Positions 3,345 to 49,987 of a DNA stretch of 64,000 nucleotides are shown piece after piece. Source of the DNA: a virus; IMG/VR virus record IMGVR_UViG_3300031951_000001, positions 1 through 64,000 of that record; one strand, 5' to 3'. Each line of letters opens with the position of its first letter. The first letter of the stretch is position 1. Below the pieces are notes generated by a model. That model was not told the origin of the DNA, made no database searches, and saw only the letters and a list, made by a program, of their open reading frames with translations. Position numbers and translations under genes: made by a program.

Positions 3345-4469
3345 ATGTCGAAAACACTTAACGAATCAGAGTTACAGGAAAAAATGGTTCAAATCTACAA
3401 AGAAGAACAAAAAAAAGTTATTGAAGAAAAATGGCAAAAATTGTCAAATAAAGATAAAAAAATGGTATTGGAGATGTTAAAAATCCAATATCCTGAAAAA
3501 TCAATTTTAATTAGCGAATCAAAGTGGTACAATACTTTGGGGGATATTGTTGGCATATTTGACCCAACTGGTGTGGTTGATTTAATTAACGGTATTAGTT
3601 ATTGGAGACAAGGTGATAAGTTATTTGCCGTTTTGTCATGGATTTCCGTATTACCTTATGTAGGTGACTTAATTGCTAAACCAGTTATTGGTTTGTTTAA
3701 GATGGGAGGGGCTTCAGCGAAAGCATTCAAAGCCGCATCATTGGCCGGTGATGCCACTAAGATGGCTCAAATTGCTAAAAAAGGAGGACCGTTAGCAGGT
3801 CTTCTTACTAAAGTTAATACTTGGGCACCAAAAGTACTTGAACCTTTGGCAAAAGGAGTTAAAAAGATACCAGGTGTAGGACCGGGTTTTGTTAAAGGTG
3901 TTGAGGATTATATCAAATTATTTAAAGATGCTAATAATACTATGTCAGCAGGTGCAAAAACTGCGACAAGGCTTACTGCAAAATCAAGTAAGTTGGCGAA
4001 ACAAGGTTCAAAATTAAGTGCTGCTGAGGCAAAACAATTAAAAGCCGCATTGGATTCGGCGACGACATATAGAGGGTTTAGAGACTTCAAAGGGGGACAA
4101 AGTTGGTTAAAATACATGAAGTCAGACGCTACTTTATCATCTAAAATATCTGCCGGAGTTCCTAGATTGTGGGGAAATCCAGCAACAAGAGCTTTGATGA
4201 GAAAAACCAAATGGTATTTGGGATTGTTAGATTTTTTAGGTGTTGCTAATTTTGTTGGTCCTGATGAACTTGAAAATAAAATTGAAGATTTGGATTCTAA
4301 AATGGCCGAATACAATAATACGCCAGAGGCTCAACAAAATTGGAATGAAGATATCCAAACTACAGAACAACCGTCTCCCGAATATTCTCAGGAAGTTTCG
4401 GCGCCTGAACCACCAAAAGAAACAAATAATAAAAGTGGCGATGATATCTTTGGATTTTTATTTACATGA
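3345..4469 (+). CDS. Tagged late protein with pretoxin-like hydrophobic segment
   Basis: A 374-residue protein preceded by a late-type box (TATTTAT at 3326-3332, 12 nt before ATG). The N-terminus MSKTLNESELQEKM contains an L-N-E triplet like the leader family in this window. Residues about 65-115 hold a Gly/Pro-rich hydrophobic stretch (GDIVGIFDPTGVVDLINGIS and SWISVLPYVGDLIAKPVIGL), resembling linkers found ahead of toxin domains and membrane-inserting segments. The middle is Ala/Lys/Ser-rich and helical; the C-terminal 60 residues are a Pro/Gln/Glu-rich tail. A packaged, injected membrane-active protein is my inference. The stop overlaps the DHH gene start by 4 nt. Confidence 0.75.
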   Translation: MSKTLNESELQEKMVQIYKEEQKKVIEEKWQKLSNKDKKMVLEMLKIQYPEKSILISESKWYNTLGDIVGIFDPTGVVDLINGISYWRQGDKLFAVLSWISVLPYVGDLIAKPVIGLFKMGGASAKAFKAASLAGDATKMAQIAKKGGPLAGLLTKVNTWAPKVLEPLAKGVKKIPGVGPGFVKGVEDYIKLFKDANNTMSAGAKTATRLTAKSSKLAKQGSKLSAAEAKQLKAALDSATTYRGFRDFKGGQSWLKYMKSDATLSSKISAGVPRLWGNPATRALMRKTKWYLGLLDFLGVANFVGPDELENKIEDLDSKMAEYNNTPEAQQNWNEDIQTTEQPSPEYSQEVSAPEPPKETNNKSGDDIFGFLFT

Positions 4470-5872
4470 AAAAATTAATTAACGAAAGTGGTATTAGGGA
4501 TATTAATAAATTAGCCCAAAGGTACCCAAAAGCAGAAATATACTTTCACCAAGATTTGGATGGTGTAACAACGGCAATCGCCATGAAGAACTATTTGGAA
4601 CAACATGGTATTAAGGTTGTTGATGCTCACGTAATACAATATGGTGATAAAGAATTCTCCGTTAAGAAGAACGACGCTCAAGGAGATACGATGCCTGTAT
4701 TGGTAGATTTCGCACACGGAAAACCAATGTTCGTTATTCATACAGACCACCACGATAGACAAGCGGGCGCCGAAGATACGAAATCAACATCGTTTAGACA
4801 GTCAAGGTCAAACGTTGAAACCATATCACAAATAGTTTCACCAAAAGAAGTATTCCCCAGTGAAGACATACTTCTGATTTCAACTGTGGATTCGGCAAAT
4901 TTCGCATCTCAAAATATCTCAATTGATGATGTGATTAATTATGTTTTTCGTTTAGATAAAGATAATTCCTTAAAACGGAATAAAATGATGTTAGGACTTG
5001 TTACTAACAAATTGTTATTAGCATTCAAAAACAAACCAGGGTTTCTTGAGGAATTGGTTATGGTGTGTAAACCATCTATAATGAGTATTCTTCAAAACAT
5101 TAAAAGAATAATGGTTGAGAAGGGATATGCTAAAATACCTGAATTGGAGAAGAACAAAGAGATGTATTTTCAACAGATGAAAGACTCACCAAATGTTAAA
5201 ATCGACGGAAACATAATTGTACAATATGGTGGTGATAGTATGGTGAAACCAGGTTCTTATGATAGATACACACCTTTTAAAAATAATCCTGATAAGGATT
5301 TCTTAGTTATTGCTTGGCCAATGGGATTAGTACAAGCATCATGTAATCCTTTTAAGAAAGAAAGGGCGTTAAAAGGAATCGATTTAGGAAAAATCAAAGA
5401 TGAGGTATTATCTAAATGGGAAAGCCAACTCAAGGAGAGAGAAATACCAATCTCAACAATTAAATGGATTTCTGAAAATACGAAAGGATTTGGTCCTGAG
5501 TCGGTAGGTTTTACATTTAAGGATTTTGTGGCATTGTATGGTAAGAATTATAAGACCAAAGAAAACGGTAGAGAAGAATTGGTCCACATTGGTGAGATGA
5601 TGGAAGTACCTTTTAGTGAATTACCTGAAGAACATAGAGAGATGTTAGATAAGGTAACTGTAAACGCTTGGGATTTAATTGACGCGAGTTCAGGGGGTCA
5701 TAAATGTATAACTAACATATCAGGTCTTAATTATTTGGGTAGAAGTAATAGACCACCAAAAGGTAAGTACAAGTATGACCCTGATAAGGATGATAGTCCA
5801 TATGTTAAATTTACAAAAATGATACAGAATGAGTTTGTTAGACTGTTAAAAGAAAAGATAACAAATTCTTAA
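4466..5872 (+). CDS. DHH-superfamily phosphoesterase (RecJ/NrnA-like)
   Basis: A 468-residue protein with DHH-family metal-binding motifs: D30-x-D32 in HQDLDGV, D81 in VDFAHG, and the DHH triad at 94-96 in HTDHHD. The family comprises Mn2+-dependent 5'-3' DNA exonucleases (RecJ), oligoribonuclease-like NrnA and cyclic-dinucleotide phosphodiesterases; the sequence does not say which. A Gly/His-rich segment near residue 410 (SSGGHKC) could belong to the DHHA1-type substrate domain. The N-terminus MKKLINES carries an I-N-E triplet like the leader family, which would be unusual for a cytosolic enzyme. Translationally coupled to the upstream gene. Confidence 0.8.
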   Translation: MKKLINESGIRDINKLAQRYPKAEIYFHQDLDGVTTAIAMKNYLEQHGIKVVDAHVIQYGDKEFSVKKNDAQGDTMPVLVDFAHGKPMFVIHTDHHDRQAGAEDTKSTSFRQSRSNVETISQIVSPKEVFPSEDILLISTVDSANFASQNISIDDVINYVFRLDKDNSLKRNKMMLGLVTNKLLLAFKNKPGFLEELVMVCKPSIMSILQNIKRIMVEKGYAKIPELEKNKEMYFQQMKDSPNVKIDGNIIVQYGGDSMVKPGSYDRYTPFKNNPDKDFLVIAWPMGLVQASCNPFKKERALKGIDLGKIKDEVLSKWESQLKEREIPISTIKWISENTKGFGPESVGFTFKDFVALYGKNYKTKENGREELVHIGEMMEVPFSELPEEHREMLDKVTVNAWDLIDASSGGHKCITNISGLNYLGRSNRPPKGKYKYDPDKDDSPYVKFTKMIQNEFVRLLKEKITNS

Positions 5873-6210
5873 AACTCAACGAAGTCACCTTCAGATATAT
5901 TCATCCTTTTACAACTACCGCCCCTCAATTCTAAAATAGTATCGCCCTCGCTACAGTAGTTTTTACAGTCATCACCTTTACATGGGGGACAACTGTGAAA
6001 TATTTTTGTGATTTGGTTATCTTTAATGAATACTATATCTAAATCGATTACACAGTTTTTCATCCAAAAACAATTTTCAGAATTATCCATTAAAAATAAC
6101 ATTCCGTTAAAATCAGGACCGAATTTTCTACCCATCATTCCCTTTTGAGTGTGTTCAGGAGTGAAAACAGTTTTGACTTTGAATTTTCGATTATTTATAC
6201 TTATAATCAT
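5869..6210 (-). CDS. DUF192 family protein
   Basis: The frame opens at 6276, but the internal ATG at 6210 is chosen because it begins the conserved fold and leaves space for the divergent Nudix gene (start 6235). The 113-residue product has the DUF192 pattern: TPEHTQKGMMGR, GMLFLMDNSENCFWMKNC and DIVFIKDNQITKI. An inserted cysteine-rich loop (CPPCKGDDCKNYC) is unusual. The family is small and beta-rich, of unclear function, and often exported in bacteria; no signal peptide remains here. It converges on the DHH gene with a 4-nt overlap. Confidence 0.8.
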   Translation of the reverse strand: MIISINNRKFKVKTVFTPEHTQKGMMGRKFGPDFNGMLFLMDNSENCFWMKNCVIDLDIVFIKDNQITKIFHSCPPCKGDDCKNYCSEGDTILELRGGSCKRMNISEGDFVEF

Positions 6211-6780: not shown

Positions 6781-6783
6781 GAT

Positions 6784-7896: not shown

Positions 7897-8202
7897 ATGA
7901 AAAATATCCTGATTACCCAAGAACAATTAAATAAGTTAGTTAATATCGTGAAGGAAAATCACGAAGGTGAAGATTCTATAACTAAAAAACAATTATTCAC
8001 AATTGCCACGTTGGCTTATAAAATGTGGGAATCGATGGATGATAATGAACAGTTGGAAGACTGGGAAGAAAGTAAGATTGCTCAATGTGAGCAGAGTATC
8101 ATTGCTGTGGTGAAGAATTATATGTATGATGAATTTGTTGATGACAATCAAACAACAGGGATGGATAAACTTAATTATGATGAGTTGGTGATAGGTAAAT
8201 GA
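7897..8202 (+). CDS. Tagged late protein, variant leader (101 aa)
   Basis: Begins MKNILITQEQLNKLVNIVKE, a variant of the MKxLITExQ leader in which the I-T-E triplet reads I-T-Q-E. A late-type box lies 14 nt upstream. The rest is acidic and helical with Trp-containing segments; unknown function. Together with 8210-8906 it forms a short late operon. Confidence 0.7.
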   Translation: MKNILITQEQLNKLVNIVKENHEGEDSITKKQLFTIATLAYKMWESMDDNEQLEDWEESKIAQCEQSIIAVVKNYMYDEFVDDNQTTGMDKLNYDELVIGK

Positions 8203-11068: not shown

Positions 11069-11608
11069 ATGAAGTTTATTATTAACGAACGCCAATATAA
11101 AATCATAAATGAACAGTTAGGATATTCTTCAGGAGGTTATCCTGAAGTTATGAAAACTAGTCAAAAAGAATTTGAAAAGCAATATCCTACTTTAACAAAT
11201 TTTTTAAGAGATTTATCCTTATGGTTTGTTCCATATATCGGTCCGTATTTGGTGGCGGCCAAAGGTACTTATGAAGGTATTGAATCCATAAAAAAAGGAG
11301 ATAATTTTATGGGTATGGTACAATTAATAACCAGCCCTTTGGCATTAGGAAAATATTTGAGGTTTGCCAAATTATACGGAATGGAACAAAATGAATTTAT
11401 GAAAATGTTAGAAATGATATATAAAAGTGGACTACCTGTTTTAAAAAATGAAGGGGTAGAGCAATTTTTTAGGTGGGGACAACAAAATTTCGGAACGACC
11501 AAATTTAATGCTTTTGTCGAAAACATAAAAGATACAACACAATTACAGAGTTTTTTAAACAGTTTAAATGATGAAGAAAAGAAAAAAATTGAAATTAAAA
11601 AAACATAA
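11069..11608 (+). CDS. Tagged late protein with membrane-inserting segment
   Basis: ATG 11069 lies 4 nt after a late-type box; an in-frame start at 11009 would read through the promoter and is rejected. The leader MKFIINERQYKIINEQ has two I-N-E triplets (ending at E7 and E15). Residues about 50-95 hold a hydrophobic Gly/Pro-rich stretch (WFVPYIGPYLVAAKGTYEGI and MVQLITSPLALGKYL) that resembles the one in the 3345-4469 protein. Inferred: a packaged protein that may enter or cross membranes. Three nucleotides separate it from the next tagged gene. Confidence 0.75.
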   Translation: MKFIINERQYKIINEQLGYSSGGYPEVMKTSQKEFEKQYPTLTNFLRDLSLWFVPYIGPYLVAAKGTYEGIESIKKGDNFMGMVQLITSPLALGKYLRFAKLYGMEQNEFMKMLEMIYKSGLPVLKNEGVEQFFRWGQQNFGTTKFNAFVENIKDTTQLQSFLNSLNDEEKKKIEIKKT

Positions 11609-11610: not shown

Positions 11611-12162
11611 ATGAAGTTTATAATCACTGAAGAACAACAAGATAGATTAAGTGCTTACGACAAAGCTCAAAAAATGTTTTTTAAGTATTGGGATAAGAAT
11701 GGACCCAAAGTTGACGATATGTTTTTTAAGTTGTTTGGTTTTACCAATTTTGGTTTAGAAATAGGTGGAAATGTCTTGAGGAGGGGTAATATCTATAGAA
11801 TGTTAATAAATTGGTATGGAGGTAAAAATGCGAAATTAAAGGCGATTGAAATGTTGAAAGAAAAAAACTTCACCGTTAATTATTGTGGTGGTTATAACTT
11901 TGATTTTAGTGTTATTGATTATACGGTTGAGGAAGATACGGGTGAAATTTATGTAACTGCCAAACCTGACATTGAAAACGGCACTGTAATATTAATCATG
12001 GTAGGAGGTGAGAGTCAATCATTAAAAGATGCTTTGAATAACGAAGAGTATGGATGGGAGATAGAAGGAGAAATAGCCGATTGTATCTATGAATTATTAC
12101 ATCAAAAAATCACAGAAACAACCGGCTATGAGATAGGAGTTGAAAAATTAATTATCGATTAA
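11611..12162 (+). CDS. Tagged late protein (183 aa)
   Basis: Leader MKFIITEEQ with I-T-E at residues 5-7. The body has an aromatic helical first half and a beta-rich second half ending EIGVEKLIID. It shares a transcript with the gene at 11069. No domain recognised. It converges with the YkuD-like gene with a 4-nt overlap. Confidence 0.7.
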   Translation: MKFIITEEQQDRLSAYDKAQKMFFKYWDKNGPKVDDMFFKLFGFTNFGLEIGGNVLRRGNIYRMLINWYGGKNAKLKAIEMLKEKNFTVNYCGGYNFDFSVIDYTVEEDTGEIYVTAKPDIENGTVILIMVGGESQSLKDALNNEEYGWEIEGEIADCIYELLHQKITETTGYEIGVEKLIID

Positions 12163-18562: not shown

Positions 18563-18629
18563 TTATTAGGTTTTATAGTAAATATCTTAAACAAAACGCG
18601 AGTTAAGATAGACTATAATTTTTTAGTTG

Positions 18630-28653: not shown

Positions 28654-28685
28654 AAACCCCACTCATGAGGTGGGGTTTAATTTTA
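28654..28685. terminator. Terminator hairpin
   Basis: A 9-bp stem AAACCCCAC/GTGGGGTTT with 7-nt loop, A-rich left flank and T-rich right flank. It ends the 28683-28988 minus-strand gene. Confidence 0.75.
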
Positions 28686-28988
28686 TTGTTTTCTTAATTT
28701 GGCTCGTTTGATTGTAGGGGAGTTCTTGGAATAGAACTTTTTATACATAGGGTCGATAACATCATCATCTACATCCCTAGTAGAGATGTTCTCAATATCA
28801 AGTTCATCATCTGAATATTCTTCGGGTTCACCCTGATTCATAAAAGAATTTTTATACCACTTTCCACTACCCATAGATGATGGGTCATGGTAGAGATAAT
28901 CATTATCCTGTTCTTCTTCACTTTCTTTTATAATTCTTTTAACGAGTTTAATCAAATCAGATTCAGTTAATCTTACAACTTTTTTCAT
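28683..28988 (-). CDS. RLTESDL-tagged protein (101 aa)
   Basis: ATG 28988 starts MKKVVRLTESDLIKLVKRII and K-E-S, with L-T-E at 7-9 and I-K-E at 20-22. A late-type box GTATATTTAT lies upstream; the longer frame to 29018 is rejected. The mature part is an acidic, disordered-looking stretch rich in Asp, Ser and Glu, ending basic (TIKRAKLRKQ). Unknown function. Confidence 0.75.
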   Translation of the reverse strand: MKKVVRLTESDLIKLVKRIIKESEEEQDNDYLYHDPSSMGSGKWYKNSFMNQGEPEEYSDDELDIENISTRDVDDDVIDPMYKKFYSKNSPTIKRAKLRKQ

Positions 28989-31644: not shown

Positions 31645-32024
31645 ACGATACGTCCGCTTCTTACATCAAAGACCTTATAGTCGGGGAGCATAGATTCAAA
31701 AGCATCAGAGATAAAGTATTTACCATTGGTCATCCAAACAGGGTGAGGTAACATCTCCTCAAAAAACCCATCATACTTATGGCTGTAGTATAAATCACCC
31801 GTTTTACCATCACTAAAAATAGAAAACATCATCATAGGATTACCGGCTGAATCGTATAGGACAATTCTATTACTATCCTCACTATATGATTCAATCTCAT
31901 CAACAATATAAGGAACGATGATATGTTTAAACTTATTGTATAGGTCCTCATACTCAAAATCCATCCAATGACGTTCAAGTTCGGATATAAGATTAAGTTG
32001 TGATTCGGTGATAAGGTATTTCAT
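31641..32024 (-). CDS. Tagged paralogue, ITES family (127 aa)
   Basis: Leader MKYLITESQLNLISELERHW, I-T-E at 5-7; late-type box 5 nt before ATG. The body (IVPYIVDEIESYSED...) is more divergent than the other four. C-terminus KVFDVRSGRIV. Converges with the polyprotein gene (4-nt overlap). Confidence 0.75.
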   Translation of the reverse strand: MKYLITESQLNLISELERHWMDFEYEDLYNKFKHIIVPYIVDEIESYSEDSNRIVLYDSAGNPMMMFSIFSDGKTGDLYYSHKYDGFFEEMLPHPVWMTNGKYFISDAFESMLPDYKVFDVRSGRIV

Positions 32025-32036: not shown

Positions 32037-32372
32037 TTACATTGATAGTTCGGCGTCACCTATCAGACCACCGTATACTTTGACATCCGAAGGTTCAATC
32101 TTACCGGAGTTAGAGTTTTCCTCAACAAAATGGGTGAGAATTAATTCGGCCTCATCCTTATCAATAGAAAAGAATTCACATACACTGTTTATAAAATCTT
32201 CGGATATTATTAAAGTACCTGACCTTCTTCTATACCTCATAACGGCGTGTGTATCGTCTAAAGAATAAACAAAACTTATATAACTTGTCCAATAAACCGC
32301 CTCAAGATTTAGTGAATTAATATAATTAAAAATAATACTGTTTAATTTAGATTCGGTGATTAGGAATTTCAT
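32037..32372 (-). CDS. Tagged paralogue, ITESKL family (111 aa)
   Basis: Leader MKFLITESKLNSIIFNYINS; then a beta-rich middle and the family's SVCEFFSIDKDEAELILTHF helix. Late-type box 5 nt before ATG. Member of the minus-strand tandem array; each has its own promoter box. Confidence 0.75.
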   Translation of the reverse strand: MKFLITESKLNSIIFNYINSLNLEAVYWTSYISFVYSLDDTHAVMRYRRRSGTLIISEDFINSVCEFFSIDKDEAELILTHFVEENSNSGKIEPSDVKVYGGLIGDAELSM

Positions 32373-32387: not shown

Positions 32388-32699
32388 TTAATACCCAACA
32401 ATCGGACTGGCAACTTCCACATTAATAGATTTTATTCCGAGTTTATTTTCAATCCATTTATTAATTACATTAATGGAGTCCCCATAATCTAAAGAAAAGA
32501 ATTTGCTAACTTCGTCGACCAAGTCGTAGTGTATTGTACACCAGCGGTCTTTCGGATGATATCTAACTTGAGCATATTCATCATCTTCAGAGTTGACATA
32601 GTATAATCTATTCCCCATTTTAATTACAACGAAGTCCTGATTGTCAAGATACTTAAAAACTATACTATCAAATTTAGATTCGGTGATAAGATATTTCAT
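32388..32699 (-). CDS. Tagged paralogue, ITESKL family (103 aa)
   Basis: Leader MKYLITESKFDSIVFKYLDN, I-T-E at 5-7. Family core: RLYYVNSEDDEYAQVRYHPK, then HYDLVDEVSKFFSLDYGDSI and INKWIENKLGIK. Closely related to the copy at 33856. Late-type box 5 nt upstream of ATG. Confidence 0.8.
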   Translation of the reverse strand: MKYLITESKFDSIVFKYLDNQDFVVIKMGNRLYYVNSEDDEYAQVRYHPKDRWCTIHYDLVDEVSKFFSLDYGDSINVINKWIENKLGIKSINVEVASPIVGY

Positions 32700-32731: not shown

Positions 32732-33157
32732 ATGAGTATTAAAGAATCCATAAGAAGAATATTAAGGGAAGAAACTTTACTTAAAACCAATATAAAAGAC
32801 ATGATTTCCAAACATGGATTTTATATAACGTCCAAAATGTTAGGTGGAGTTGATATTATGAATAGTATTCTTAATATAAAAGGTTCACAGGAAGAAATGA
32901 TTTTCATTGTTAAAGCCATAATGGAACATGATGTTGAAGTTTTGGGTAATGTATGTAACTATCAAATAGTTCCGACCATGTACTCATTTAAACTATATGT
33001 AGAAATACCAAAATATTATCCCAACCATTCCGATGATTATTACCCAAACAAACAAAAAACATTTGAGGCGAGAGATTATATATCTGACTTAATAAAAAAG
33101 TTTGGAAATGAAAAGGTGAGAGGATATAATATATACGTTCAGGTAGGAAATTGTTAA
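32732..33157 (+). CDS. Tagged protein related to polyprotein module 5
   Basis: Leader MSIKESIRRILREETLLKTN with L-R-E at 11-13; late-type box in the short divergent spacer with the minus-strand paralogue. The body DMISKHGFYITSKMLGGVDI resembles the last polyprotein module (DLVKEFGLIKTSDMVGLSIS). The C-terminal half has IPKYYPNHSDDYYPNKQKTF and FGNEKVRGYNIYVQVG. Unknown function. Confidence 0.75.
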   Translation: MSIKESIRRILREETLLKTNIKDMISKHGFYITSKMLGGVDIMNSILNIKGSQEEMIFIVKAIMEHDVEVLGNVCNYQIVPTMYSFKLYVEIPKYYPNHSDDYYPNKQKTFEARDYISDLIKKFGNEKVRGYNIYVQVGNC

Positions 33158-33158: not shown

Positions 33159-33476
33159 TTAGTCAGCTCCGTAATCAGAGAAGATATAGTCAAAATCAAA
33201 ATCAATTTTGGTTTTAATCCATTCACCAATAATATTCAAAGCGGTCTCCAAGTCCAAACTAAAGAATGATGCGACCTCAACAACTAAATCTGAACTTACA
33301 AAACATTCTTTATTAACACGATTTGTGTTGATTGATATATATCCACCACTTTCCCAACTCTCCTTAGAGTCCCAAAAGACATAACCAGAGTGATACTTCA
33401 TTTTATAAAAGTCCTGGTTATTTAAGTAGTCAAAGACAAGATTAGTAAGTTTAGATTCGGTGATAAGGAATTTCAT
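33159..33476 (-). CDS. Tagged paralogue, ITESKL family (105 aa)
   Basis: Leader MKFLITESKLTNLVFDYLNN; family core with SDLVVEVASFFSLDLETALN and IIGEWIKTKIDF. The stop is 4 nt from the polyprotein-related gene; the start overlaps the upstream paralogue by 4 nt, and it lacks its own late box. Confidence 0.75.
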   Translation of the reverse strand: MKFLITESKLTNLVFDYLNNQDFYKMKYHSGYVFWDSKESWESGGYISINTNRVNKECFVSSDLVVEVASFFSLDLETALNIIGEWIKTKIDFDFDYIFSDYGAD

Positions 33477-33838
33477 TCGGTTTTAACAATTAATCTGTGA
33501 GAAGACCCACTGTTGATAGTGTTTTCTATTTTACCAACCTTAATACCCAAAGTATCACTAACCCATACTTTTATTATCTCTAAACAATCCAAATCATCAA
33601 TAGAGAAGAAATCAGATAATTCCTTAATTAAATCATAATTCACATATACCCAATTCCTAACAAAACCAAAAGAGTTTATGTGATAAACACTAATCTGAGC
33701 GTAAAGGTCGGACTCATTGTTTAAGAAGTATATGTAGTTGTCAAATTTCTTCTTGTTGTCATATACTATAAAATCCTGATTATCCAAATACATAGACACT
33801 GTATTATACAATTTAGATTCTGTGATTAAGTATTTCAT
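33473..33838 (-). CDS. Tagged paralogue, ITESKL family (121 aa)
   Basis: Leader MKYLITESKLYNTVSMYLDN; core includes YDLIKELSDFFSIDDLDCLE and VWVSDTLGIKVGK, plus a longer C-terminal tail. Late-type box 6 nt before ATG. Confidence 0.75.
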   Translation of the reverse strand: MKYLITESKLYNTVSMYLDNQDFIVYDNKKKFDNYIYFLNNESDLYAQISVYHINSFGFVRNWVYVNYDLIKELSDFFSIDDLDCLEIIKVWVSDTLGIKVGKIENTINSGSSHRLIVKTE

Positions 33839-33855: not shown

Positions 33856-34179
33856 TTAGTTAGGTATTACCAACGCATAACCTGAACTCGGAGCAACACC
33901 GATGCTTTCGACCTCCATTTTTATGATATTCTCAACCCATTTAACAATAACTTTATCAAAGTCAGAATCTTGTAAAGAAAAGAACATAGAAATTTCATTA
34001 TATAAATCGTAAGATACGTAACACCGACCATCTTTGTCAAATCTTATTTGAGCATATTCATCTGATTCAGAATTGACAAAGTATATGCTTTCTCTATTTT
34101 TAAACCGAATAAAGTCCTGATTGTCCAAATACTGAAGGATAATACTATCCAATTTAGATTCGGTGATTAGGTATTTCAT
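33856..34179 (-). CDS. Tagged paralogue, ITESKL family (107 aa)
   Basis: Leader MKYLITESKLDSIILQYLDN; core SIYFVNSESDEYAQIRFDKD and SYDLYNEISMFFSLQDSDFD. First gene of the minus-strand array, reading away from the inverted-repeat-rich spacer. Confidence 0.8.
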   Translation of the reverse strand: MKYLITESKLDSIILQYLDNQDFIRFKNRESIYFVNSESDEYAQIRFDKDGRCYVSYDLYNEISMFFSLQDSDFDKVIVKWVENIIKMEVESIGVAPSSGYALVIPN

Positions 34180-36499: not shown

Positions 36500-36877
36500 A
36501 TGAAAAAAACAGTTAGACTTACAGAATCAGATTTAGTTAATTTGATTAAGAGAATTATAAAAGAAGAAGAGGGAACGGACTTATCTAATGTTAGAGCCGA
36601 GTTTATAGATTTAATAAAGAGTATGAATTGGGAGTTTAATCCAAATCATAACATGTCAGGGTTTGCGTTTGTCCCTAAAAAAGGGGACATTGGATATAGT
36701 GGGTTTAAGCAAGACAGTTTCAATATGTATATTGGCAAACCATTAATCTTTAATGGTAGTGATGATAATGAATATTGTTATTTAGATAAGAATAATAATT
36801 TTGTTCTCAAGAGATTTGGTAAAAAGTCAACCTCCCCTTTATCATCAGGGATTGGTGGTATTAAGAATTTATTGTGA
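36500..36877 (+). CDS. RLTESDL-tagged protein (125 aa)
   Basis: Leader MKKTVRLTESDLVNLIKRII then KEE, with L-T-E at 7-9 and I-K-E at 20-22. The mature part has a beta-rich domain (MSGFAFVPKKGDIGYSGFKQ) and a Ser/Gly tail. Late-type box (GGTATTTATTAT) upstream. Unknown function. Confidence 0.75.
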   Translation: MKKTVRLTESDLVNLIKRIIKEEEGTDLSNVRAEFIDLIKSMNWEFNPNHNMSGFAFVPKKGDIGYSGFKQDSFNMYIGKPLIFNGSDDNEYCYLDKNNNFVLKRFGKKSTSPLSSGIGGIKNLL

Positions 36878-37246: not shown

Positions 37247-37621
37247 ATGAAAAAAGTTATAAGATTAACCGAATCGGATTTAGTTCGTTTAGTAAAACAA
37301 GTTATAAATGAGCAATCTATTCCTGAACCCGAAAAGATTTCCGCTGACCATGCTAAATTTGAGGAATATGTAAAGACAAAATGGGGTTGGAAGGAAGACC
37401 CTTATGCTTCAATTGACTTTGAAGGAGGTGATAACAAGTTTACAATATGTGATGGTCCGTGTGGTTCACTTATTCCTGGTACAGATGTTAATAGTGTTAC
37501 ATGGGATGGAAAAACTAAAACGGTATATGGAACCGTATCATTTGGAGTTGACCCCAAACCAATTTCATGGAGTTATAAATTTAACCAAATGAAAACATGG
37601 TTTGATTCTTCTTTCGGATAA
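37247..37621 (+). CDS. RLTESDL-tagged protein (124 aa)
   Basis: ATG 37247; leader MKKVIRLTESDLVRLVKQVI then NEQ, with L-T-E at 7-9 and I-N-E at 20-22. Mature region starts SIPEPEKISADHAKFEEYVK and contains a cysteine pair (ICDGPCGS). The frame to 37187 runs through the promoter cassette and is rejected. Confidence 0.75.
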   Translation: MKKVIRLTESDLVRLVKQVINEQSIPEPEKISADHAKFEEYVKTKWGWKEDPYASIDFEGGDNKFTICDGPCGSLIPGTDVNSVTWDGKTKTVYGTVSFGVDPKPISWSYKFNQMKTWFDSSFG

Positions 37622-37724: not shown

Positions 37725-38033
37725 ATGAGATATATTATAACGGAAGAACAAAATAATATTATTCGTGTCCTACGAAGAATTGACCAAGACCATGATTTGA
37801 TTCAGGATATTGTTGTTGAGGGAATGGAAATGTATTTGTGTGATTATGACCCCTTTAATTATTTTTATGAATTTTTATGTCGGAACTCAGCATTTACTTA
37901 TCTTTTAAATTATTTTGATAACCCACGTCAAGAAGGGTTCATGAAAATGGAAGATTATATGACTGATTATATTAAGGAAAACTTTAAGGAAATGATTGTT
38001 ACCTATTGGGAAGATAATAAGGAATATTGTTAA
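37725..38033 (+). CDS. Tagged protein (102 aa)
   Basis: Leader MRYIITEEQNNIIRVLRRID with I-T-E at 5-7. Remainder is acidic and aromatic with two cysteines (MYLCDYDPFNYFYEFLCRNS). Unknown function; own cassette promoter. Confidence 0.75.
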   Translation: MRYIITEEQNNIIRVLRRIDQDHDLIQDIVVEGMEMYLCDYDPFNYFYEFLCRNSAFTYLLNYFDNPRQEGFMKMEDYMTDYIKENFKEMIVTYWEDNKEYC

Positions 38034-38095: not shown

Positions 38096-38434
38096 ATGAA
38101 TCTCACAGAATTATCACATGTTTTAACGAAGGTGTATAACAAACTTGGAAACAAGTATCTTGTTGATAATTATATTACCGAGCCGTTTGAGTTTGAGGTT
38201 AAGGTAAAATATGGTGACCCATATGAATATTATAAGTATTATGCCGAGGTTTATAGTATTCCTGATATGCCACATGATTTTAGGTATAGACCTGAAGTTA
38301 GAAAAGAAAAAAAGAAGTATGCCGTTGGAGCCGATATTAGCGTTGTTGGGAGTGATTTTAAAAGTATGATTGAATATGTTGACCCTGAAAAGAAACAGTC
38401 CATTGGTGTTAACTTTATGAATGTTAAAAAATAA
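38096..38434 (+). CDS. Late protein with short leader (112 aa)
   Basis: Starts MNLTELSHVLTKVYNKLGNK; L-T-E at 3-5 is a weak match to the leader rule. Aromatic middle EYYKYYAEVYSIPDMPHDF and basic segment VRKEKKKYAVGADISVVG. Own cassette promoter. Confidence 0.65.
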   Translation: MNLTELSHVLTKVYNKLGNKYLVDNYITEPFEFEVKVKYGDPYEYYKYYAEVYSIPDMPHDFRYRPEVRKEKKKYAVGADISVVGSDFKSMIEYVDPEKKQSIGVNFMNVKK

Positions 38435-38496: not shown

Positions 38497-39036
38497 ATGA
38501 AATACATTCTTACGGAGTCACAGTATGCTGGGCTGATGAAACTAATTAAAAAACAAGAAGAGGATTTGAGTTTTTTGAAAAGTAGTGTGGTCTCTACAAT
38601 CGAACATGACGTAACAGATTTTTTAAACTCCAAGTTTCAAGGTAGATTTGGACACTATGGTTATACGCAATATCCCGTATTTTTTATTTATCCTGATAAA
38701 TTAACCTCTGAACTTACAAAATATAATAGGAGAGAACCGGCTTTGGTTATTGCTTATAATATAAAAAAATCTACAGGCAAAGTTGAAATTAATATTTTTT
38801 GGAATACTAAAGTGAGTTTTAATTATAAAACAGAAGATGGTAAATGGAAAAGAAATAAGTATCCCCAAAATACCATTAAGTGGGATTATATGAATAACCC
38901 TGACGGAGAAGAGGAATTCTTATCTAAATTGGAAAAGACCATTAACGGAAGAATAAGTGAAAGGGCTCAAAACAAAATTATTGATGATTTTGAAAAACTT
39001 TATAGAGAAGAATATCAAACTAGTATATTAAATTAA
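38497..39036 (+). CDS. Tagged protein (179 aa)
   Basis: Leader MKYILTESQYAGLMKLIKKQ with L-T-E at 5-7. A helical first third is followed by a beta-rich region (PALVIAYNIKKSTGKVEINI) with several aromatic residues. No family recognised. Confidence 0.75.
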   Translation: MKYILTESQYAGLMKLIKKQEEDLSFLKSSVVSTIEHDVTDFLNSKFQGRFGHYGYTQYPVFFIYPDKLTSELTKYNRREPALVIAYNIKKSTGKVEINIFWNTKVSFNYKTEDGKWKRNKYPQNTIKWDYMNNPDGEEEFLSKLEKTINGRISERAQNKIIDDFEKLYREEYQTSILN

Positions 39037-39106: not shown

Positions 39107-39478
39107 ATGAAAAAGATAATTAGACTTACCGAATCCGAACTAATCAAAGTTGTAAAACGTATTATTAACGAACAGCATTTTGATGAATTTATGACATCAT
39201 CTGAAACATCTTCAGTCTCTAATGTCGTACAAAATCTTGAAAGAGAAATGGGTGATTACAAAAATAAAATGGATGGATTTTTATCCGATTTGAAATCATC
39301 AGGTGATATTGATTGGAATAGATTCTTGAAGCAAGTTAGAAATCAAACAAGTGAAATATTTCATAAGTATGATGATGAATCTTTATCTAGGGAGGACTCA
39401 TTAAACCTCTTCAATACATTCTCCCAACTCCAATCAAACCTTCTTAATCATTATAAAGGACAATACAGAAATTCTTAA
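39107..39478 (+). CDS. RLTESEL-tagged helical protein (123 aa)
   Basis: Leader MKKIIRLTESELIKVVKRII then NEQ; triplets L-T-E (7-9) and I-N-E (20-22). The mature part is Ser/Asn/Asp-rich and helical, like a small scaffold or DNA-condensing protein; no motif. Confidence 0.75.
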   Translation: MKKIIRLTESELIKVVKRIINEQHFDEFMTSSETSSVSNVVQNLEREMGDYKNKMDGFLSDLKSSGDIDWNRFLKQVRNQTSEIFHKYDDESLSREDSLNLFNTFSQLQSNLLNHYKGQYRNS

Positions 39479-39491: not shown

Positions 39492-39770
39492 ATGAAAAAG
39501 ATAATTAGACTTACAGAATCAGATTTAACAAGAATTGTTAAACGTGCTATTAACGAATCGGACCGAGCTTATGGTCATGAAGAAATAGGTAAACTATATT
39601 CTAAATTGGGAGACGATGAGGATGTTGAATTGAGTGACGAGTCTGGCGAATTGTCAGGTGGGATTGTTAAGAAGATTGACTATGTAAAGAATATGCTGAG
39701 AAAAGCCATAAAGAATGAGGATTGGGAAATGGTTAATAGAGCCATGAGTTATCTTAACATGAAATTATAA
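39492..39770 (+). CDS. RLTESDL-tagged protein (92 aa)
   Basis: Leader MKKIIRLTESDLTRIVKRAI then NES. Mature part is acidic with alternating Asp/Glu and Lys-rich helix (KKIDYVKNMLRKAIKNEDWE). Thirteen nt after the previous gene, so shared transcript. Confidence 0.75.
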   Translation: MKKIIRLTESDLTRIVKRAINESDRAYGHEEIGKLYSKLGDDEDVELSDESGELSGGIVKKIDYVKNMLRKAIKNEDWEMVNRAMSYLNMKL

Positions 39771-39810: not shown

Positions 39811-40065
39811 ATGGGAAAAAAAATTCGATTGACCGAATCTGAGTTAACCAAATTAATAAAGAAAATGATTTCGGAAGACTTGGAAATGATGGACGTTTCC
39901 TCAGATTCTGATTATTATAAAGCAAGAAAACGAGAAGTATCCATACCCAAAGACGATTTGGCGTTACTAGGTCATATGGCCACAAGGTATTGTGAAAGAA
40001 AAGAAAATCTACCAGATTGTCAAAGAGTTCAGGATTTGTATTCCCGTTATCAATTATTTATGTAA
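39811..40065 (+). CDS. RLTESEL-tagged protein (84 aa)
   Basis: Leader MGKKIRLTESELTKLIKKMI then SED; triplets L-T-E and I-S-E at 7-9 and 20-22. A late-type box (TATATTTATAAT) lies upstream. Mature part has a possible helix with MATRYCERKENLPDCQRVQD. Confidence 0.75.
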   Translation: MGKKIRLTESELTKLIKKMISEDLEMMDVSSDSDYYKARKREVSIPKDDLALLGHMATRYCERKENLPDCQRVQDLYSRYQLFM

Positions 40066-40076: not shown

Positions 40077-40325
40077 ATGAAAAAACCTATTAGATTAACC
40101 GAATCCGACCTTAATAGAATTGTTAAAAAAACAATTATGGAAATGGGAGGTATGACCAATTCAATTGAGATGTATGACTTCAATAAAAGAAAAATGATAA
40201 ATGGATTACATCAATTGAAATCCTCCATAGATAGTGGAGATAATGAAACTGCATCACATATTGTACAAGTTTTACTTTTAACATTAAACGAACTTGATTC
40301 TTATGTTGATGAAATGAAAAGATAA
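40077..40325 (+). CDS. RLTESDL-tagged protein (82 aa)
   Basis: ATG 40077 begins MKKPIRLTESDLNRIVKKTI then MEM; I-M-E at 20-22. The longer frame to 40017 overlaps the previous gene and is rejected. The rest is a short helical domain. Confidence 0.75.
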   Translation: MKKPIRLTESDLNRIVKKTIMEMGGMTNSIEMYDFNKRKMINGLHQLKSSIDSGDNETASHIVQVLLLTLNELDSYVDEMKR

Positions 40326-40329: not shown

Positions 40330-41223
40330 ATGAAAAATTTATATTTTTTAGACAACTCAGAAAGAGAAAGAATTCTCAATCTACATGAATCGGCAACCAA
40401 GAATCAATATTTGATTAACGAACAATCGGCAGATAAAGATATTGCCGGTAGAATATATAAAGCATCGTATGGACCTGGTACAGGTAGTGATTTTTTAACC
40501 GCAATACAAGCAATATCTAGTTTACAACAATTGAAAAATGTTGATGCTCTTTTGAAGAGTGGTTATGGTCAACTTGGTCTACAAGGTCAAATTAACGATG
40601 AATTTAACCCACAAGAAGCAACCGATAGAGCAAGCTTAAAGGCGTTTCAGAGTCACTTGGCTAAACTTGGTGCTACGATGACATTCGACCAAAATAGAAA
40701 CGAAAGTGTTGTTATTAATTACCAATCAACCGTTCAAGCTCAACCTGAGACACAAAAAACAGAAGAGCAACAAGTGGCTGATTGGTCACAAAAATTCCCA
40801 TGTGTTGTAAACTATCCCGGAGCCCAAAAAATTGCCAATCCCCGTACCGATACTAATGTTTCAGGCACTGTTGCTTATAAAATAGGTGAATTTACTTATT
40901 TTATTGATGGTAACCAATATGGTAAAGGAAGTTATAGTACCTACACATGTGATGATGCATTTTTCAAAAATTCGTCAAGAGTACAAGCCAATCCAGAACA
41001 AAAGGGAGGTAAGACAAGTGGTGCTCCACAACCTTACAAACATGCTCAACATGTAACAAATGTTCAGAACAAATTAAAGGAGATTGACCCGGCCTTCGCT
41101 GGTGGAGTTACAAAAACAGGTCAAATGGACCAAGCTACTATAAACAAGCTCATGGAAATACTTATGTCAAAAAAGATGCCTGAGACTAAAGTTGAGACAC
41201 CGGCTCCTGAAGCTGAAGGTTAA
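40330..41223 (+). CDS. Tagged protein with C-terminal peptidoglycan-binding-like domain
   Basis: A 297-residue protein with two leader triplets, L-H-E (18-20) and I-N-E (29-31, ...YLINEQ). Central region is Gln/Ala/Gly-rich with FDQNRNESVVINYQST and a beta segment (GTVAYKIGEFTYFIDGNQYG). The C-terminal 70 residues contain HVTNVQNKLKEIDPAFAGGV and TGQMDQATINKLMEIL, matching the pattern of peptidoglycan-binding domain 1. Inferred: packaged cell-wall-binding protein. Confidence 0.65.
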   Translation: MKNLYFLDNSERERILNLHESATKNQYLINEQSADKDIAGRIYKASYGPGTGSDFLTAIQAISSLQQLKNVDALLKSGYGQLGLQGQINDEFNPQEATDRASLKAFQSHLAKLGATMTFDQNRNESVVINYQSTVQAQPETQKTEEQQVADWSQKFPCVVNYPGAQKIANPRTDTNVSGTVAYKIGEFTYFIDGNQYGKGSYSTYTCDDAFFKNSSRVQANPEQKGGKTSGAPQPYKHAQHVTNVQNKLKEIDPAFAGGVTKTGQMDQATINKLMEILMSKKMPETKVETPAPEAEG

Positions 41224-41237: not shown

Positions 41238-42449
41238 ATGAAATTTATAATTACCGAAGAGGAAAAAAAATATATTAAGGGACTCTATGGGTTGATAACT
41301 GAACAGACCAATGTTTCTAATGTTGTCATACCCGACAATATTTTGGAATATTCATATGACGAATGGGTAAAATGGTATAATGAAAATATAAAACCATTCA
41401 ACTCTACAACTCTAAGGAAAATAGTAAAAAATCGTATACCCGATAACCCTGATTTATTATTATCAGATGGTATAAGAAGCATCACTAAAACTCCGGATGA
41501 TAGAAGTAAATTCAATGGATTATTGAAAAAGTTTAACACTCCTCTATCTTCAAGTGCGACTATTTCAGAAAGAGATTCATTAATTTCAGCCTTCGAGCTA
41601 GCTCAAAATCTTGTTAATGAAGTTTATGAAAAATGGAATGATAGTTTGAAAAAAAATATGGTATTAACCATAACAGAAACAACAGAAACCGTTCCTGGCG
41701 AATCTATCGGTGGTACGGTAGAATTCCCAATTGAATGGAATCCTGATACCAATATTCAGTTATATGTTAATAATGAGTGGGAGTTGTCTCCAGAAGCCAT
41801 TGAATCTTATAATCAAAATATTCTAAGTAAAGTAAATATTGCGAAAGAACAATTCCCAAATGCGATAATATCATTGAAGTCATTGGATATTCAAACTTCT
41901 GCATCAAGATATAGAAATACCGGGCGGGCATCCGATTTAACTTTTCAAGAGCTATCAGGATATAGAAACAATTCTGCCAAAGATTATATAATTAATTCAT
42001 TAAAAGAAAATGGTGTCACCGAGACGGATACCGTAACCCCAACTCAACAATATTTAGGAAGTAATGGTGATGGTACCACAGGACCTAATCCTCCTGAGCC
42101 AAATGCTTATGTTAATGGAGGTAATGTTAAAATGAATACAACATCTACCGAACCAAGAAACCAATTTGGAGAACCTCACGCAACACCTGAAGAATATAAC
42201 CAATACAAATATTTAAAAGTGAAAATTGTTTTAGCCGCCACGATAGAGACAGAGGAAACCACACAGTCACCTGTTGAAGTTTTCAATTACTCATTGGATA
42301 TTGACGGTAAAATTATACCACCACCAACTCCGGTTAAAAGACCAAAACCAAAAGGTAAGTCATCCTCATTTAATTTCAGGGATAAATTAGCAGGATTTTT
42401 GAGTATAAATCCTAAATTATGTGCCGCTTATCAATCAGGAGGAAACTAA
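41238..42449 (+). CDS. Tagged protein of unknown function (403 aa)
   Basis: Leader MKFIITEEEKKYIKGLYGLI then TEQ: triplets I-T-E at 5-7 and 20-22. Middle: beta-rich region with GESIGGTVEFPIEWNPDTNI and an OmpA-like-looking SASRYRNTGRASDLTFQELS; the Pro/Gly-rich and Thr-rich C-terminal third (NGDGTTGPNPPEPNAYVNGG) is probably extended. A virion or exported structural role is likely. Confidence 0.65.
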   Translation: MKFIITEEEKKYIKGLYGLITEQTNVSNVVIPDNILEYSYDEWVKWYNENIKPFNSTTLRKIVKNRIPDNPDLLLSDGIRSITKTPDDRSKFNGLLKKFNTPLSSSATISERDSLISAFELAQNLVNEVYEKWNDSLKKNMVLTITETTETVPGESIGGTVEFPIEWNPDTNIQLYVNNEWELSPEAIESYNQNILSKVNIAKEQFPNAIISLKSLDIQTSASRYRNTGRASDLTFQELSGYRNNSAKDYIINSLKENGVTETDTVTPTQQYLGSNGDGTTGPNPPEPNAYVNGGNVKMNTTSTEPRNQFGEPHATPEEYNQYKYLKVKIVLAATIETEETTQSPVEVFNYSLDIDGKIIPPPTPVKRPKPKGKSSSFNFRDKLAGFLSINPKLCAAYQSGGN

Positions 42450-44402: not shown

Positions 44403-44732
44403 ATGAAGATTGTATTAACAGAATCTCAAATGGAAAAGTTGATTGATGAGCAATTGACTAAACCTAAAGAGACCGAGGATTTTTCAGAGTATATCAGAAA
44501 ATTTAACACGATTAAACTTAATAATAAGACATTTACTCCTGACGATTTTTTATCGAAGTTAAATAATTCACCAATCCAACTTAATTTATTCCATATTCAA
44601 ACAGATGGGTATAATATCGGAACGGGAGCTTTATCTGCTAAAGGTAAAATTGGTAATCTCAATTTGATATTGAGTGTGAAACCGGTAGGAGATTTCAAAA
44701 CAGGTTTGGTTACAATAACAAAAACGATATAA
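44403..44732 (+). CDS. Tagged protein (109 aa)
   Basis: Leader MKIVLTESQMEKLIDEQL: triplets L-T-E (5-7) and I-D-E (14-16). Late-type box (TATATTTATAT) a few nt before ATG. The mature part is beta-rich (IGTGALSAKGKIGNLNLILS). No family recognised. Confidence 0.75.
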   Translation: MKIVLTESQMEKLIDEQLTKPKETEDFSEYIRKFNTIKLNNKTFTPDDFLSKLNNSPIQLNLFHIQTDGYNIGTGALSAKGKIGNLNLILSVKPVGDFKTGLVTITKTI

Positions 44733-44760: not shown

Positions 44761-45174
44761 ATGAAACATTTATTGAATGACTTATCCGAAGAGGAAAAAA
44801 ATAGAATTCGTGAGCAACACACTGGCGGTAAGAAACTTGTAATCGAAAATTTCGATAAACTTGTTAATACCAAACTTGGTGATGTTAAACCATTGTTGCG
44901 GGAACAAACTGAGGAAGCAAATATTACAAAATCTATTCAGTGTTTTTTAAATAAAAGAATGAATGCGGGTTTAGTAGTTGATGGTTTAGCCGGTGATAAT
45001 ACAAGTAAAGCCGTTGAAAAATACCAAAGTAACATTGGAGTTTTTCCTACTGATGGGATATTGGGCCCCGATACAAAAGATAAAATGCCACAATCTGACG
45101 TTAAAATATTAGAGGAATGTATAAATGAACATTCGGATATTATTGATAAAGTATTAAGGTGGTTTGGATTTTAA
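44761..45174 (+). CDS. Tagged peptidoglycan-binding-domain protein
   Basis: A 137-residue protein. The N-terminus MKHLLNDLSEEEKNRIREQH has L-S-E and I-R-E triplets, with LLRE near residue 47. The C-terminal part (SIQCFLNKRMNAGLVVDGLA, then GDNTSKAVEKYQSNIGVFPT) is the peptidoglycan-binding domain 1 type, which has DGxxGxxT and a repeated helix. An N-terminal, possibly removed leader followed by a wall-binding domain resembles the 40330 protein. Confidence 0.75.
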   Translation: MKHLLNDLSEEEKNRIREQHTGGKKLVIENFDKLVNTKLGDVKPLLREQTEEANITKSIQCFLNKRMNAGLVVDGLAGDNTSKAVEKYQSNIGVFPTDGILGPDTKDKMPQSDVKILEECINEHSDIIDKVLRWFGF

Positions 45175-46184: not shown

Positions 46185-46604
46185 GTGATTAACTTAAATG
46201 AAGAAGTAAGAAAGTTTGGATACCTTTCATTGTATAAAAGAGGTGTGGTTATTTCCGAACAAACAACAGGCACAACTAGTACTAGCGGTGTAACTTCAGG
46301 TTTAACTACAGTAGAAACTACCTTACTCGGTTTTCTAAATGACGTTGTTCAAAAAAGTTTAACCCAAGACCCATCAAATGTTTCTTTCAGTGGATTAACC
46401 GATGATGTCGAGAAAAGAAAACAAATGACTGATTTGAGTAATCAATTAATACAAAAAAGAGATACTGGTTCGGTAGATGTAAATCAAAGTAATTTTCAAT
46501 TATATCTCAATACGATGAACAGTATGTTTCCTAATACGGAAGACAAACTCCCATTTTATCAATTGGGGTTAGGTGTTAAAAAGATGGAACAGAAAACCAT
46601 TTAG
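46185..46604 (+). CDS. Tagged protein with GTG start (139 aa)
   Basis: GTG 46185 (MINLNEEVRKFGYLSLYKRG) with triplets L-N-E (4-6) and I-S-E (23-25). A late-type box is present upstream. The mature region is Thr/Ser/Gly-rich (TTGTTSTSGVTSGLTTVETT) and then helical. It converges with 46576-47058 (29-nt overlap). Confidence 0.7.
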   Translation: MINLNEEVRKFGYLSLYKRGVVISEQTTGTTSTSGVTSGLTTVETTLLGFLNDVVQKSLTQDPSNVSFSGLTDDVEKRKQMTDLSNQLIQKRDTGSVDVNQSNFQLYLNTMNSMFPNTEDKLPFYQLGLGVKKMEQKTI

Positions 46605-48874: not shown

Positions 48875-48936
48875 ATTAATAAATAGTCTATGGGCACGCT
48901 TGTTGATATTTATACAATAATATACAAACAAAAAAA

Positions 48937-49269: not shown

Positions 49270-49285
49270 TTTTGTATTTATTAGT

Positions 49286-49987
49286 ATGGAAAATCTTGAT
49301 TACTTGAAACTTCAAAAGAAAATCGTCAATTCTGAAAATTTAGATGAGTTAAAGGACGCGGTAAAAGAAGTTAATCAATTTGTCAAAGATAAAAAAATAA
49401 AATCAGGTTCTGACGAGTTTAAAAAACTACAGGAAAGAATCAACATAGTATTAATCAAATTGAGAAAGAAATTAAAAACAGAACAAAAAACTATTGTTGT
49501 TACAGAGCAACAATTAAGTAGAATAGTTAAATTATTGTCGGAAGTTGATTCAACGTCACAGGACATTATTGATAGAATTCTTGACCAAATTTCAAAACAC
49601 GGGGAAGAATCATTGTCTCCATCACAAAAGAAAAAGTTACAAGATTTTAGTTCGGGTAAATCATTAGAATATGATAAACCAAAATTCAGAGATAGACCAG
49701 GTGTAACATTTGAATCACAAGAAGAACCCACTGTTTCATTTACATTACTTGAAACAATTGAAACTGAAGATGGTCATGAATACTTGGGTGAAGTTGTGTT
49801 TATGGAAAATGAATACACCGGATTTGTAACTACCGATGAGAATGAAGAACTCACATCAATTGAGTTTGAAAACTTAAATACACAAAAAGATTTATTAGAA
49901 GACGCGGGAGACAATGTCCCCCACATCGTAAGTTTTTTCGAAGGTGTGGTAATGGGATTAGCCGATGAGGACAATCCTTACGATTGA
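49286..49987 (+). CDS. Protein with internal tag and DUF6576-like segment
   Basis: A 233-residue protein. N-terminal 65 residues are a charged coil. Residues about 69-90 read KTIVVTEQQLSRIVKLLSEV, the same layout as the leader family but internal. Next comes IIDRILDQISKHGEESLSPS, resembling DUF6576 found at the C-terminus of rhomboid proteins. The C-terminal 90 residues are acidic beta. An internal leader implies cleavage after the coil. Late-type box (GTATTTATTAG) before ATG. Confidence 0.65.
   Translation: MENLDYLKLQKKIVNSENLDELKDAVKEVNQFVKDKKIKSGSDEFKKLQERINIVLIKLRKKLKTEQKTIVVTEQQLSRIVKLLSEVDSTSQDIIDRILDQISKHGEESLSPSQKKKLQDFSSGKSLEYDKPKFRDRPGVTFESQEEPTVSFTLLETIETEDGHEYLGEVVFMENEYTGFVTTDENEELTSIEFENLNTQKDLLEDAGDNVPHIVSFFEGVVMGLADEDNPYD

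What the first reader, a model, noticed from the sequence alone, without database searches (positions are those of the whole stretch)
3345..49987. About 30 unrelated proteins share short N-terminal leaders with (I/L)-x-E cleavage-like triplets
Leaders fall into three types: MK(Y/F)(L/I)ITE(S/E/Q); MKK(I/V)(I/V)RLTES(D/E)L...I(N/K/S)E; and MNLKESIKRILREE. Downstream sequences are mostly unrelated. Triplets end at residues 7-9, and in the RLTES type also exactly at 22 (also in the ITE-type protein at 41238). The position ruler and the (I/L)-x-E pattern match the recognition of T4-type prohead protease, whose internal proteins carry capsid-targeting leaders. I infer a general packaging tag that delivers a large protein arsenal with the DNA.
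Basis: partly seen in the sequence, partly recalled or inferred. Interest (0 to 1): 0.9.

Follow-up and report, generated by a model that had tools for sequence, protein, structure and literature searches.

The report
Phage protein-packaging tags, massively expanded
A giant virus of Bacteroidota bacteria appears to fit about 40 otherwise unrelated proteins with short removable address tags that would send them into its head, as phage T4 does with only a handful, so such phages may inject a large and changeable set of proteins together with their DNA.

Summary
The window is part of a 322-kb T4-type jumbo phage of the Bacteroidota-infecting, bS21-bearing group. A strict census finds 38 leader proteins in it (0.4 expected after shuffling), about 49 with looser cases; 28-34 lie in the window. 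There are four leader types, not three.

The decisive evidence is comparative. Homologous bodies carry different leaders in different phages, joined exactly after (I/L)xE in nine families (...RMITE|SGIRD, MKKLINE|SGIRD, ...KMLIKE|SGIRD). Conservation of the RLTES leader ends abruptly after E22, or E26 in a sister clade. The genome encodes a gp21-type prohead protease, and its capsid-protein site LINE60|A aligns with T4 gp23 FLTE65|A. Leader genes share the head genes' late-promoter-like motif (23/24). Selection acts on protein, not DNA.

One correction: the first triplet (E7/E9) in the RLTES and most ITE leaders is probably a helix cap within the targeting element. The likely cut is the last triplet (E15-16, E22, E26).

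Packaging, cleavage and delivery remain inferred, because no virion proteome was available. It works like T4's capsid-targeting sequences but is greatly expanded, modular and unrelated in sequence: a new variant of a known kind.

The parts
3345..4469 (+). Protein with a long propeptide-like N-terminus (LNE7, LQE12, ISE58|SKWYNTL; relative L102 has INE59|ATGWNTL)
4466..5872 (+). DHH/RecJ-like protein, short leader MKKLINE|SGIRD; relatives carry RLTES- and ITE-type leaders joined at the same point
   Evidence: weak Pfam DHH hit; fold search
7897..8202 (+). ITE-type variant with ITQ first triplet, MKNILITQEQLNKLVNIVKE20|N
11069..11608 (+). ITE type, MKFIINERQYKIINE15|Q
11611..12162 (+). ITE type, MKFIITEEQQDRL
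26653..27054 (+). ITE type, MKFLITEQQNEKIVE15|F
27378..28193 (+). KES type, MNLKETIKKILRE13|E
28190..28588 (-). ITE-type variant with ITQ first triplet, MRYFITQGQLHSIIYNYLDE20
28683..28988 (-). RLTES type, ...RIIKE22|S
29788..31644 (+). KES type, MNLKESIKRILRE13|E, 618 aa; listed ORF start 29734 is 54 bases upstream of this likely start
31641..32024 (-). ITE type, MKYLITESQLNLISE15|L
32037..32372 (-). ITE type, MKFLITESKLNSII
32388..32699 (-). ITE type, tandem paralogue family YLDNQDF
32732..33157 (+). KES type, MSIKESIRRILRE13|E
33159..33476 (-). ITE type, paralogue family
33473..33838 (-). ITE type, paralogue family
33856..34179 (-). ITE type, paralogue family
36500..36877 (+). RLTES type, ...RIIKE22|E
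37247..37621 (+). RLTES type, ...QVINE22|Q
37725..38033 (+). ITE type, MRYIITEEQNNII
38096..38434 (+). Loose member, MNLTE5...NYITE29|P, late motif
38497..39036 (+). ITE type, MKYILTESQYAGL
39107..39478 (+). RLTES type, ...RIINE22|Q
39492..39770 (+). RLTES type, ...RAINE22|S
39811..40065 (+). RLTES type, ...KMISE22|D
40077..40325 (+). RLTES type, ...KTIME22|M
40330..41223 (+). LH type, MKNLYFLDNSERERILNLHESATKNQYLINE31|Q; 82% identical to relatives over 28 residues only, bodies unrelated
41238..42449 (+). LH type, MKFIITEEEKKYIKGLYGLITE22|Q
44403..44732 (+). ITE type, MKIVLTESQMEKLIDE16|Q
44761..45174 (+). LH type with peptidoglycan-binding domain (PF01471)
46185..46604 (+). Loose member, MINLNE6...VVISE25|Q, late motif
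49286..49987 (+). Leader-like element inside the protein, KTIVVTEQQLSRIVKLLSE|VDSTSQDIIDRILDQIS; homologues L201/L173 have it at the N-terminus

Best explanation
These leaders are capsid-targeting propeptides. Each is a short N-terminal element, in the longer types a capped amphipathic helix, that is thought to dock the protein onto the scaffold core of the assembling head. It ends in a recognition site, (I/L)-x-E, for the phage's gp21-type prohead protease. After head assembly the protease would cut after that Glu, drop the leader, and leave the unrelated mature proteins inside the head with the DNA, to be ejected into the host cell. Shown at sequence level: the shared leaders; their end at (I/L)xE; their exchange between homologous bodies at exactly that point; the matching protease and capsid-protein site; the shared late-promoter-like motif; selection on protein. 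Inferred: binding to the core, actual cleavage, presence in the virion, injection, and cargo function.
For: Protease: PF03420, 87 bits, at 117245-117670 of the same genome, inside a T4-type head cluster with portal, protease and major capsid protein hits. Capsid protein: predicted prodomain site LINE60|A is conserved as [IL]xE|A in 27 relatives and aligns with T4 gp23 FLTE65|A. Boundary: over 126 RLTES leaders with non-redundant bodies, information is 2.90 bits at residue 22, 1.10 at 23 and below 0.2 afterwards; of the 16 leaders without E22, 13 have Glu at 26, in a clade whose helix is one turn longer. Swaps: nine body families carry leaders of different type or length joined exactly after (I/L)xE; where BLAST homology starts at the first residue after Glu, 39 of 96 pairs have [ILVM]xE in that very column, against at most 12 at any other offset. 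Glu specificity: the LTE pattern gives at least 119 viral loci, the same pattern with LTD gives 2; in T4, Asp at the site blocks processing but not targeting (PMC9026906). Viral specificity: only 4 loci in 257 Gb of bacterial and archaeal genomes. Linkage: 18 of 23 large leader-bearing or protease-bearing records encode PF03420, and the other five also lack the capsid gene, so look like fragments without the head cluster. Late class: TATTTAT upstream of 23/24 leader genes against 56/144 others (p 1e-7), repeated in G006 (15/16) and G015 (10/10). Cargo domains include SOD, NUDIX, GNAT, lysozyme/peptidoglycan-binding and GH19. T4 Alt begins MELITE, IPII/IPIII MKTYQEFIAE, IPI has ITE ending at 19.
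Against: No virion proteomics, no N-terminal peptides and no cultured host. Several ITE-type proteins (the 32-34 kb paralogues) have only the E7 triplet, and two have ITQ there, so whether they are cleaved is unclear. The first triplet fits a helix N-cap as well as a protease site. The leaders have no sequence similarity to T4's leader beyond the final triplet. 13% of the first RLTES set lack E22, explained mostly by the E26 clade. (I/L)xE is a short motif that also occurs by chance in any protein.
Confidence: 0.74

Rival explanations
1. The leaders do target proteins to the prohead and are cut, but the proteins are core or scaffold components consumed during head maturation rather than cargo kept in the virion and injected.
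For: Some members are acidic or rich in (I/L)xE throughout, like T4 core proteins (115604, 119143, 306427). T4 core proteins gp22, gp67 and gp68 are broken up by gp21 (PMC9026906).
Against: Several leader proteins have few sites after the leader and several carry enzyme domains unlikely in a scaffold (SOD, NUDIX, GNAT, GH19). The repertoire varies between relatives, which fits accessory cargo.
Confidence: 0.12
2. The leader is a permanent docking helix (to head core, tail, membrane or another phage complex) that is not cleaved; the final Glu is structural.
For: The longer leaders look like capped amphipathic helices (L12, I15, V16, V19, I20). The first Glu fits an N-cap role, and two proteins have Gln there.
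Against: Conservation stops sharply after Glu. Leaders as short as MKKLINE or MSNKKLNE keep only the triplet before the body. The genome has the matching protease and capsid site. Helices 22 and 26 long both end in (I/L)xE.
Confidence: 0.09
3. The shared starts reflect a DNA or RNA element (a promoter or translation-start cassette) copied in front of genes, with no protein function.
For: Leader genes share the TATTTAT upstream motif, and leaders are plainly exchanged between genes.
Against: Codon entropy inside leaders matches that of the bodies at nearly all positions, so synonymous sites vary freely. One leader-start stretch tested has no RNA structure (z 0.72). Glu to Asp almost abolishes the pattern.
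Confidence: 0.02
4. The proteins are diverged paralogues of one family whose N-terminus is simply the best conserved part.
For: One true tandem paralogue family exists at 32-34 kb.
Against: 194 RLTES-type proteins fall into 149 body clusters. Bodies include unrelated known folds. The same body occurs with different leader types.
Confidence: 0.02

Closest known systems
T4 capsid-targeting sequences (IPI, IPII, IPIII, Alt) cut by gp21
   Same: Short N-terminal propeptide on otherwise unrelated proteins, ending in a hydrophobic-x-Glu site of a Peptidase_S77 prohead protease; same kind of site in the major capsid protein; T4 Alt starts MELITE, close to MKYLITE.
   Different: T4 has four such proteins with leaders of about 6-19 residues. 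This genome has about 38-49, in four leader types unrelated in sequence to MKTYQEFIAE; typical leaders are 15-31 residues with a capped helix, and some proteins also have internal or C-terminal copies.
Injected internal proteins of T-even relatives, anti-restriction cargo (PMC12373910)
   Same: Many unrelated small proteins found by a common leader that directs packaging; at least 10 reported across related phages.
   Different: Here tens in one genome, with enzymes and proteins up to 618 aa, in Bacteroidota jumbo phages.
Ejection proteins of phiKZ-like giant phages (SPN3US, PMC10052503)
   Same: A giant phage packs many head proteins; some lose N-terminal propeptides to a prohead protease that cuts after Glu.
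   Different: SPN3US has nine known substrates with mostly long propeptides (111-254 residues). Here the capsid and protease are T4-type and the leaders are a few standard modules.
bS21-bearing Bacteroidetes jumbo phages (PMC9723584)
   Same: Same arrangement: reverse-strand bS21 within the terminase/portal/protease/capsid cluster; same genome size class and predicted hosts.
   Different: The passages of that paper that I read report no leaders or packaged proteins, apart from a suggestion that bS21 itself might be encapsidated.

Membership tests
T4-type capsid-targeting sequence (CTS) proteins | Common short N-terminal leader on unrelated proteins | tested here: met
   38 strict leaders against 0.4 expected; 35 body clusters
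T4-type capsid-targeting sequence (CTS) proteins | Leader ends in a hydrophobic-x-Glu prohead protease site | tested here: met
   Conservation cliff after E22/E26 and leader swaps at (I/L)xE
T4-type capsid-targeting sequence (CTS) proteins | Genome encodes a gp21-type (Peptidase_S77) protease and a gp23-type capsid protein with a matching site | tested here: met
   PF03420 87 bits; phrog_138 capsid protein; LINE60|A aligned to gp23 E65|A
T4-type capsid-targeting sequence (CTS) proteins | Leader homologous in sequence to T4 MKTYQEFIAE | tested here: not met
   None of the four types resembles it beyond the last triplet
T4-type capsid-targeting sequence (CTS) proteins | Made late, with the head genes | tested here: inconclusive
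   Shared upstream motif TATTTAT; no transcript data for this phage
T4-type capsid-targeting sequence (CTS) proteins | Protein present inside the virion, leader removed, protein injected | not testable with these tools
   Needs virion proteomics
phiKZ/SPN3US-type ejection proteins | phiKZ-type head proteins and individual, mostly long propeptides | tested here: not met
   Capsid, portal and protease match T4-type families; leaders are short and shared
bS21 Bacteroidetes jumbo phage group | Reverse-strand bS21 inside the conserved head cluster | tested here: met
   PF01165 above cut-off at 116317-116505 (-), between portal and protease genes

The most novel reading that the evidence does not exclude
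A modular cargo-address system: at least four interchangeable tag types, possibly docking to different partners or positions in the head, usable at N-termini, C-termini or inside polyproteins that the prohead protease would then split (e.g. superoxide dismutase plus nuclease-like domain), so that one phage ships about 40 different proteins and swaps tags and cargo freely.
Probability: 0.3. Interest if true: 0.85.

Novelty: new variant of a known kind. Interest (0 to 1): 0.74.

Why it matters
If right, a 14-26-residue N-terminal signature lets anyone read the cargo list of uncultured Bacteroidota jumbo phages from sequence alone: dozens of proteins of unknown function gain a place (inside the head) and a time of action (the first minutes of infection). 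T4's few internal proteins are anti-restriction and host-takeover factors; here the set is about tenfold larger and differs between relatives, so it is a rich source of counter-defence candidates. The tags could also be used to load chosen proteins into phage heads for Bacteroidota.

Tried and rejected
Searching known phages with 23- and 31-residue leader consensus sequences gave no match; that search is weak for such short queries. The cultured Flavobacterium phage immuto has the same head genes and TATTTAT motif but only 2 leaders of these types; it carries a different repeated leader (FLxENxLTxNxxLxxE, three proteins). The model of 118104 is too poor to use (pLDDT 49). The 4466 body gives only a DHH/RecJ-superfamily fold match with low TM-scores. 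A DNA/RNA-level explanation was tested and disfavoured. Ungapped extrapolation over all homologous pairs was blurred by indels and replaced by pairs whose homology starts at the junction. The first promoter count used a hand-extended leader list (28/28); the strict pattern list (23/24) is the figure to trust. My notebook entry of 15/16 leaders with E26 was a miscount; the list shows 13 of 16. No paper printing the RLTES motif was found.
Full report
WHAT WAS CHECKED. The window is bases 1-64000 of a 322,372-base virus record. I read the rest of the record, called about 350 genes and tested the claim on the whole genome. [IL]xE ends at residue 7, 9 and 22 far more often than in shuffled proteins (28 vs 4.6, 16 vs 4.2, 17 vs 4.4), while [IL]xD shows nothing at 7 and 9. 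A strict pattern census gives 38 leader proteins (0.4 expected after shuffling); two relatives have 31 each, two more distant ones 10 and 13. There are four types: R (MKKIIRLTESDLTRIVKRVINE|), I (MKYIITESQYKKLIxE), N (MNLKESIKRILRE|E) and H (MKKLLITEEEKNRILNLH...INE|Q).

THE PHAGE. It has a T4-type head cluster at about 112-122.5 kb: terminase, gp20-type portal, Peptidase_S77 protease and gp23-type capsid protein, with a reverse-strand ribosomal protein S21 gene between portal and protease. That arrangement marks a published group of Bacteroidetes jumbo phages of lakes (PMC9723584).

WHERE THE LEADER ENDS. In 126 R leaders with non-redundant bodies, conservation is high to residue 22 (E22, 2.90 bits), weak at 23 (Q preferred) and absent beyond. 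Of the 16 leaders without E22, 13 have Glu at 26; they belong to a variant with a helix one turn longer. In the I type, conservation runs through E7 and Q9 to residue 14, and 19 of 65 have [ILV]xE at 15 or 16. So E7/E9 in these types lies inside the conserved element, where T/S-E-x-D/E/Q looks like a helix cap (my inference); two window proteins even have Gln there. The last triplet is the better candidate for cleavage.

LEADER SWAPS. The strongest evidence is that homologous bodies carry different leaders joined after (I/L)xE. DHH-like family...TQVIKRMITE|SGIRDIN (L102), MKKLINE|SGIRDIN (window 4466), MKIIITESQYKMLIKE|SGIRDIN (L199), MRKIISE|SGIRNIR (G006). YMFFSNLEQ family: R type ...LVKRVLSE|SHEEGSDRYMFF against N-like MKNLNSIIRKVIRE|THEEKSSRYMFF. 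L173/L201...EILIE|NQKYVDSLLDKIS against ...NRVINE|NQEEVDRILDKIS. The 127606 family has leaders of 8-16 residues that, one fragment aside, all end in [IL]xE. Nine such families were found; where BLAST homology starts at the first residue after Glu, 39 of 96 pairs have a triplet in exactly that column, against at most 12 at any other offset.

LINK TO THE PROTEASE. The capsid protein's candidate site LINE60|A is kept in 27 relatives and aligns with T4 gp23's cleavage site after residue 65 (65-residue gp23 propeptide in PMC9026906). T4's own packaged proteins show the same logic: Alt MELITE, IPII/IPIII MKTYQEFIAE, IPI with ITE at 19. In T4, Asp at the last leader position allows targeting but blocks processing (PMC9026906); here replacing LTE by LTD in a degenerate search drops the count from at least 119 loci to 2. 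Of 23 large related records (21 found by the leader pattern, 2 by the protease) 18 encode the protease, and the other five lack the capsid gene as well. Bacterial and archaeal genomes give only four loci in 257 Gb.

EXPRESSION AND LEVEL OF SELECTION. TATTTAT lies within 35 bases upstream of 23 of 24 leader genes that have room for a promoter, against 56 of 144 other genes; it recurs in two relatives (15/16, 10/10) and precedes structural genes here and in the cultured Flavobacterium phage immuto. A host-type motif, TAnnTTTG, marks other genes but no leader genes in the promoter count. Codon use inside leaders is about as varied as in bodies, so the protein sequence is what is kept.

CARGO. Most bodies match nothing. 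Named domains are Fe/Mn superoxide dismutase, NUDIX, GNAT, peptidoglycan-binding, LysM, lysozyme, GH19, OmpA and a DHH/RecJ-like fold. One protein joins superoxide dismutase to a nuclease-like domain, with (I/L)xE at the joints; a relative joins the dismutase to a metallopeptidase-like domain, again with [IL]xE just before it (the nuclease-like and metallopeptidase-like labels are read by eye). The 127606 family has a leader-like helix at its C-terminus too; T4 Alt is also cut at both ends (PMC9026906).

CONCLUSION. The sequence evidence fits capsid-targeting propeptides much better than any rival, with the cut at the last triplet. Packaging, cleavage and injection are inferred from T4 and need virion proteomics. 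The kind is known from T4; the scale, the four exchangeable tag types, and the internal and C-terminal copies are new as far as the searched literature shows.

Noticed in passing
record position 116317-116505 (-) (L004:12317-12505:-): Ribosomal protein S21 (PF01165) on the reverse strand inside the head cluster, placing the phage in the bS21 group of PMC9723584.
   Followed up: yes
record position 212077-213618 (-); L206:2197-3288:-: Superoxide dismutase fused to a nuclease-like domain with (I/L)xE at the joints; a relative fuses the dismutase to a HEWVH metallopeptidase-like domain instead.
   Followed up: partly
record position 127606-128337 (+); L040, L041, L093, L175 relatives: Leader-like helix at the C-terminus as well as an N-terminal leader (e.g. 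SIRLSENQLESLVKSIVKE at the C-terminus in L040).
   Followed up: partly
upstream regions genome-wide: Two promoter-like classes: TATTTAT (head, tail and leader genes) and TAnnTTTG (Bacteroidota host type, other genes); TATTTATA is the reverse complement of T4's late TATAAATA.
   Followed up: partly
G014:C1:96515-97099 (+): A 194-aa protein with a capsid-protein-like propeptide (site IFE75|AV) followed by a body not recognisable as capsid protein.
   Followed up: no
L217, L218 (Flavobacterium phage immuto): Three proteins share a different repeated N-terminus, NFxLxxFLxENxLTxNxxLxxE; a possible fifth leader type in a cultured phage.
   Followed up: partly
window 7897-8202 and 28190-28588: Leaders with ITQ instead of ITE at the first triplet but a later (I/L)xE.
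   Followed up: no
window 18629-18701 (-): tRNA-Glu gene.
   Followed up: no
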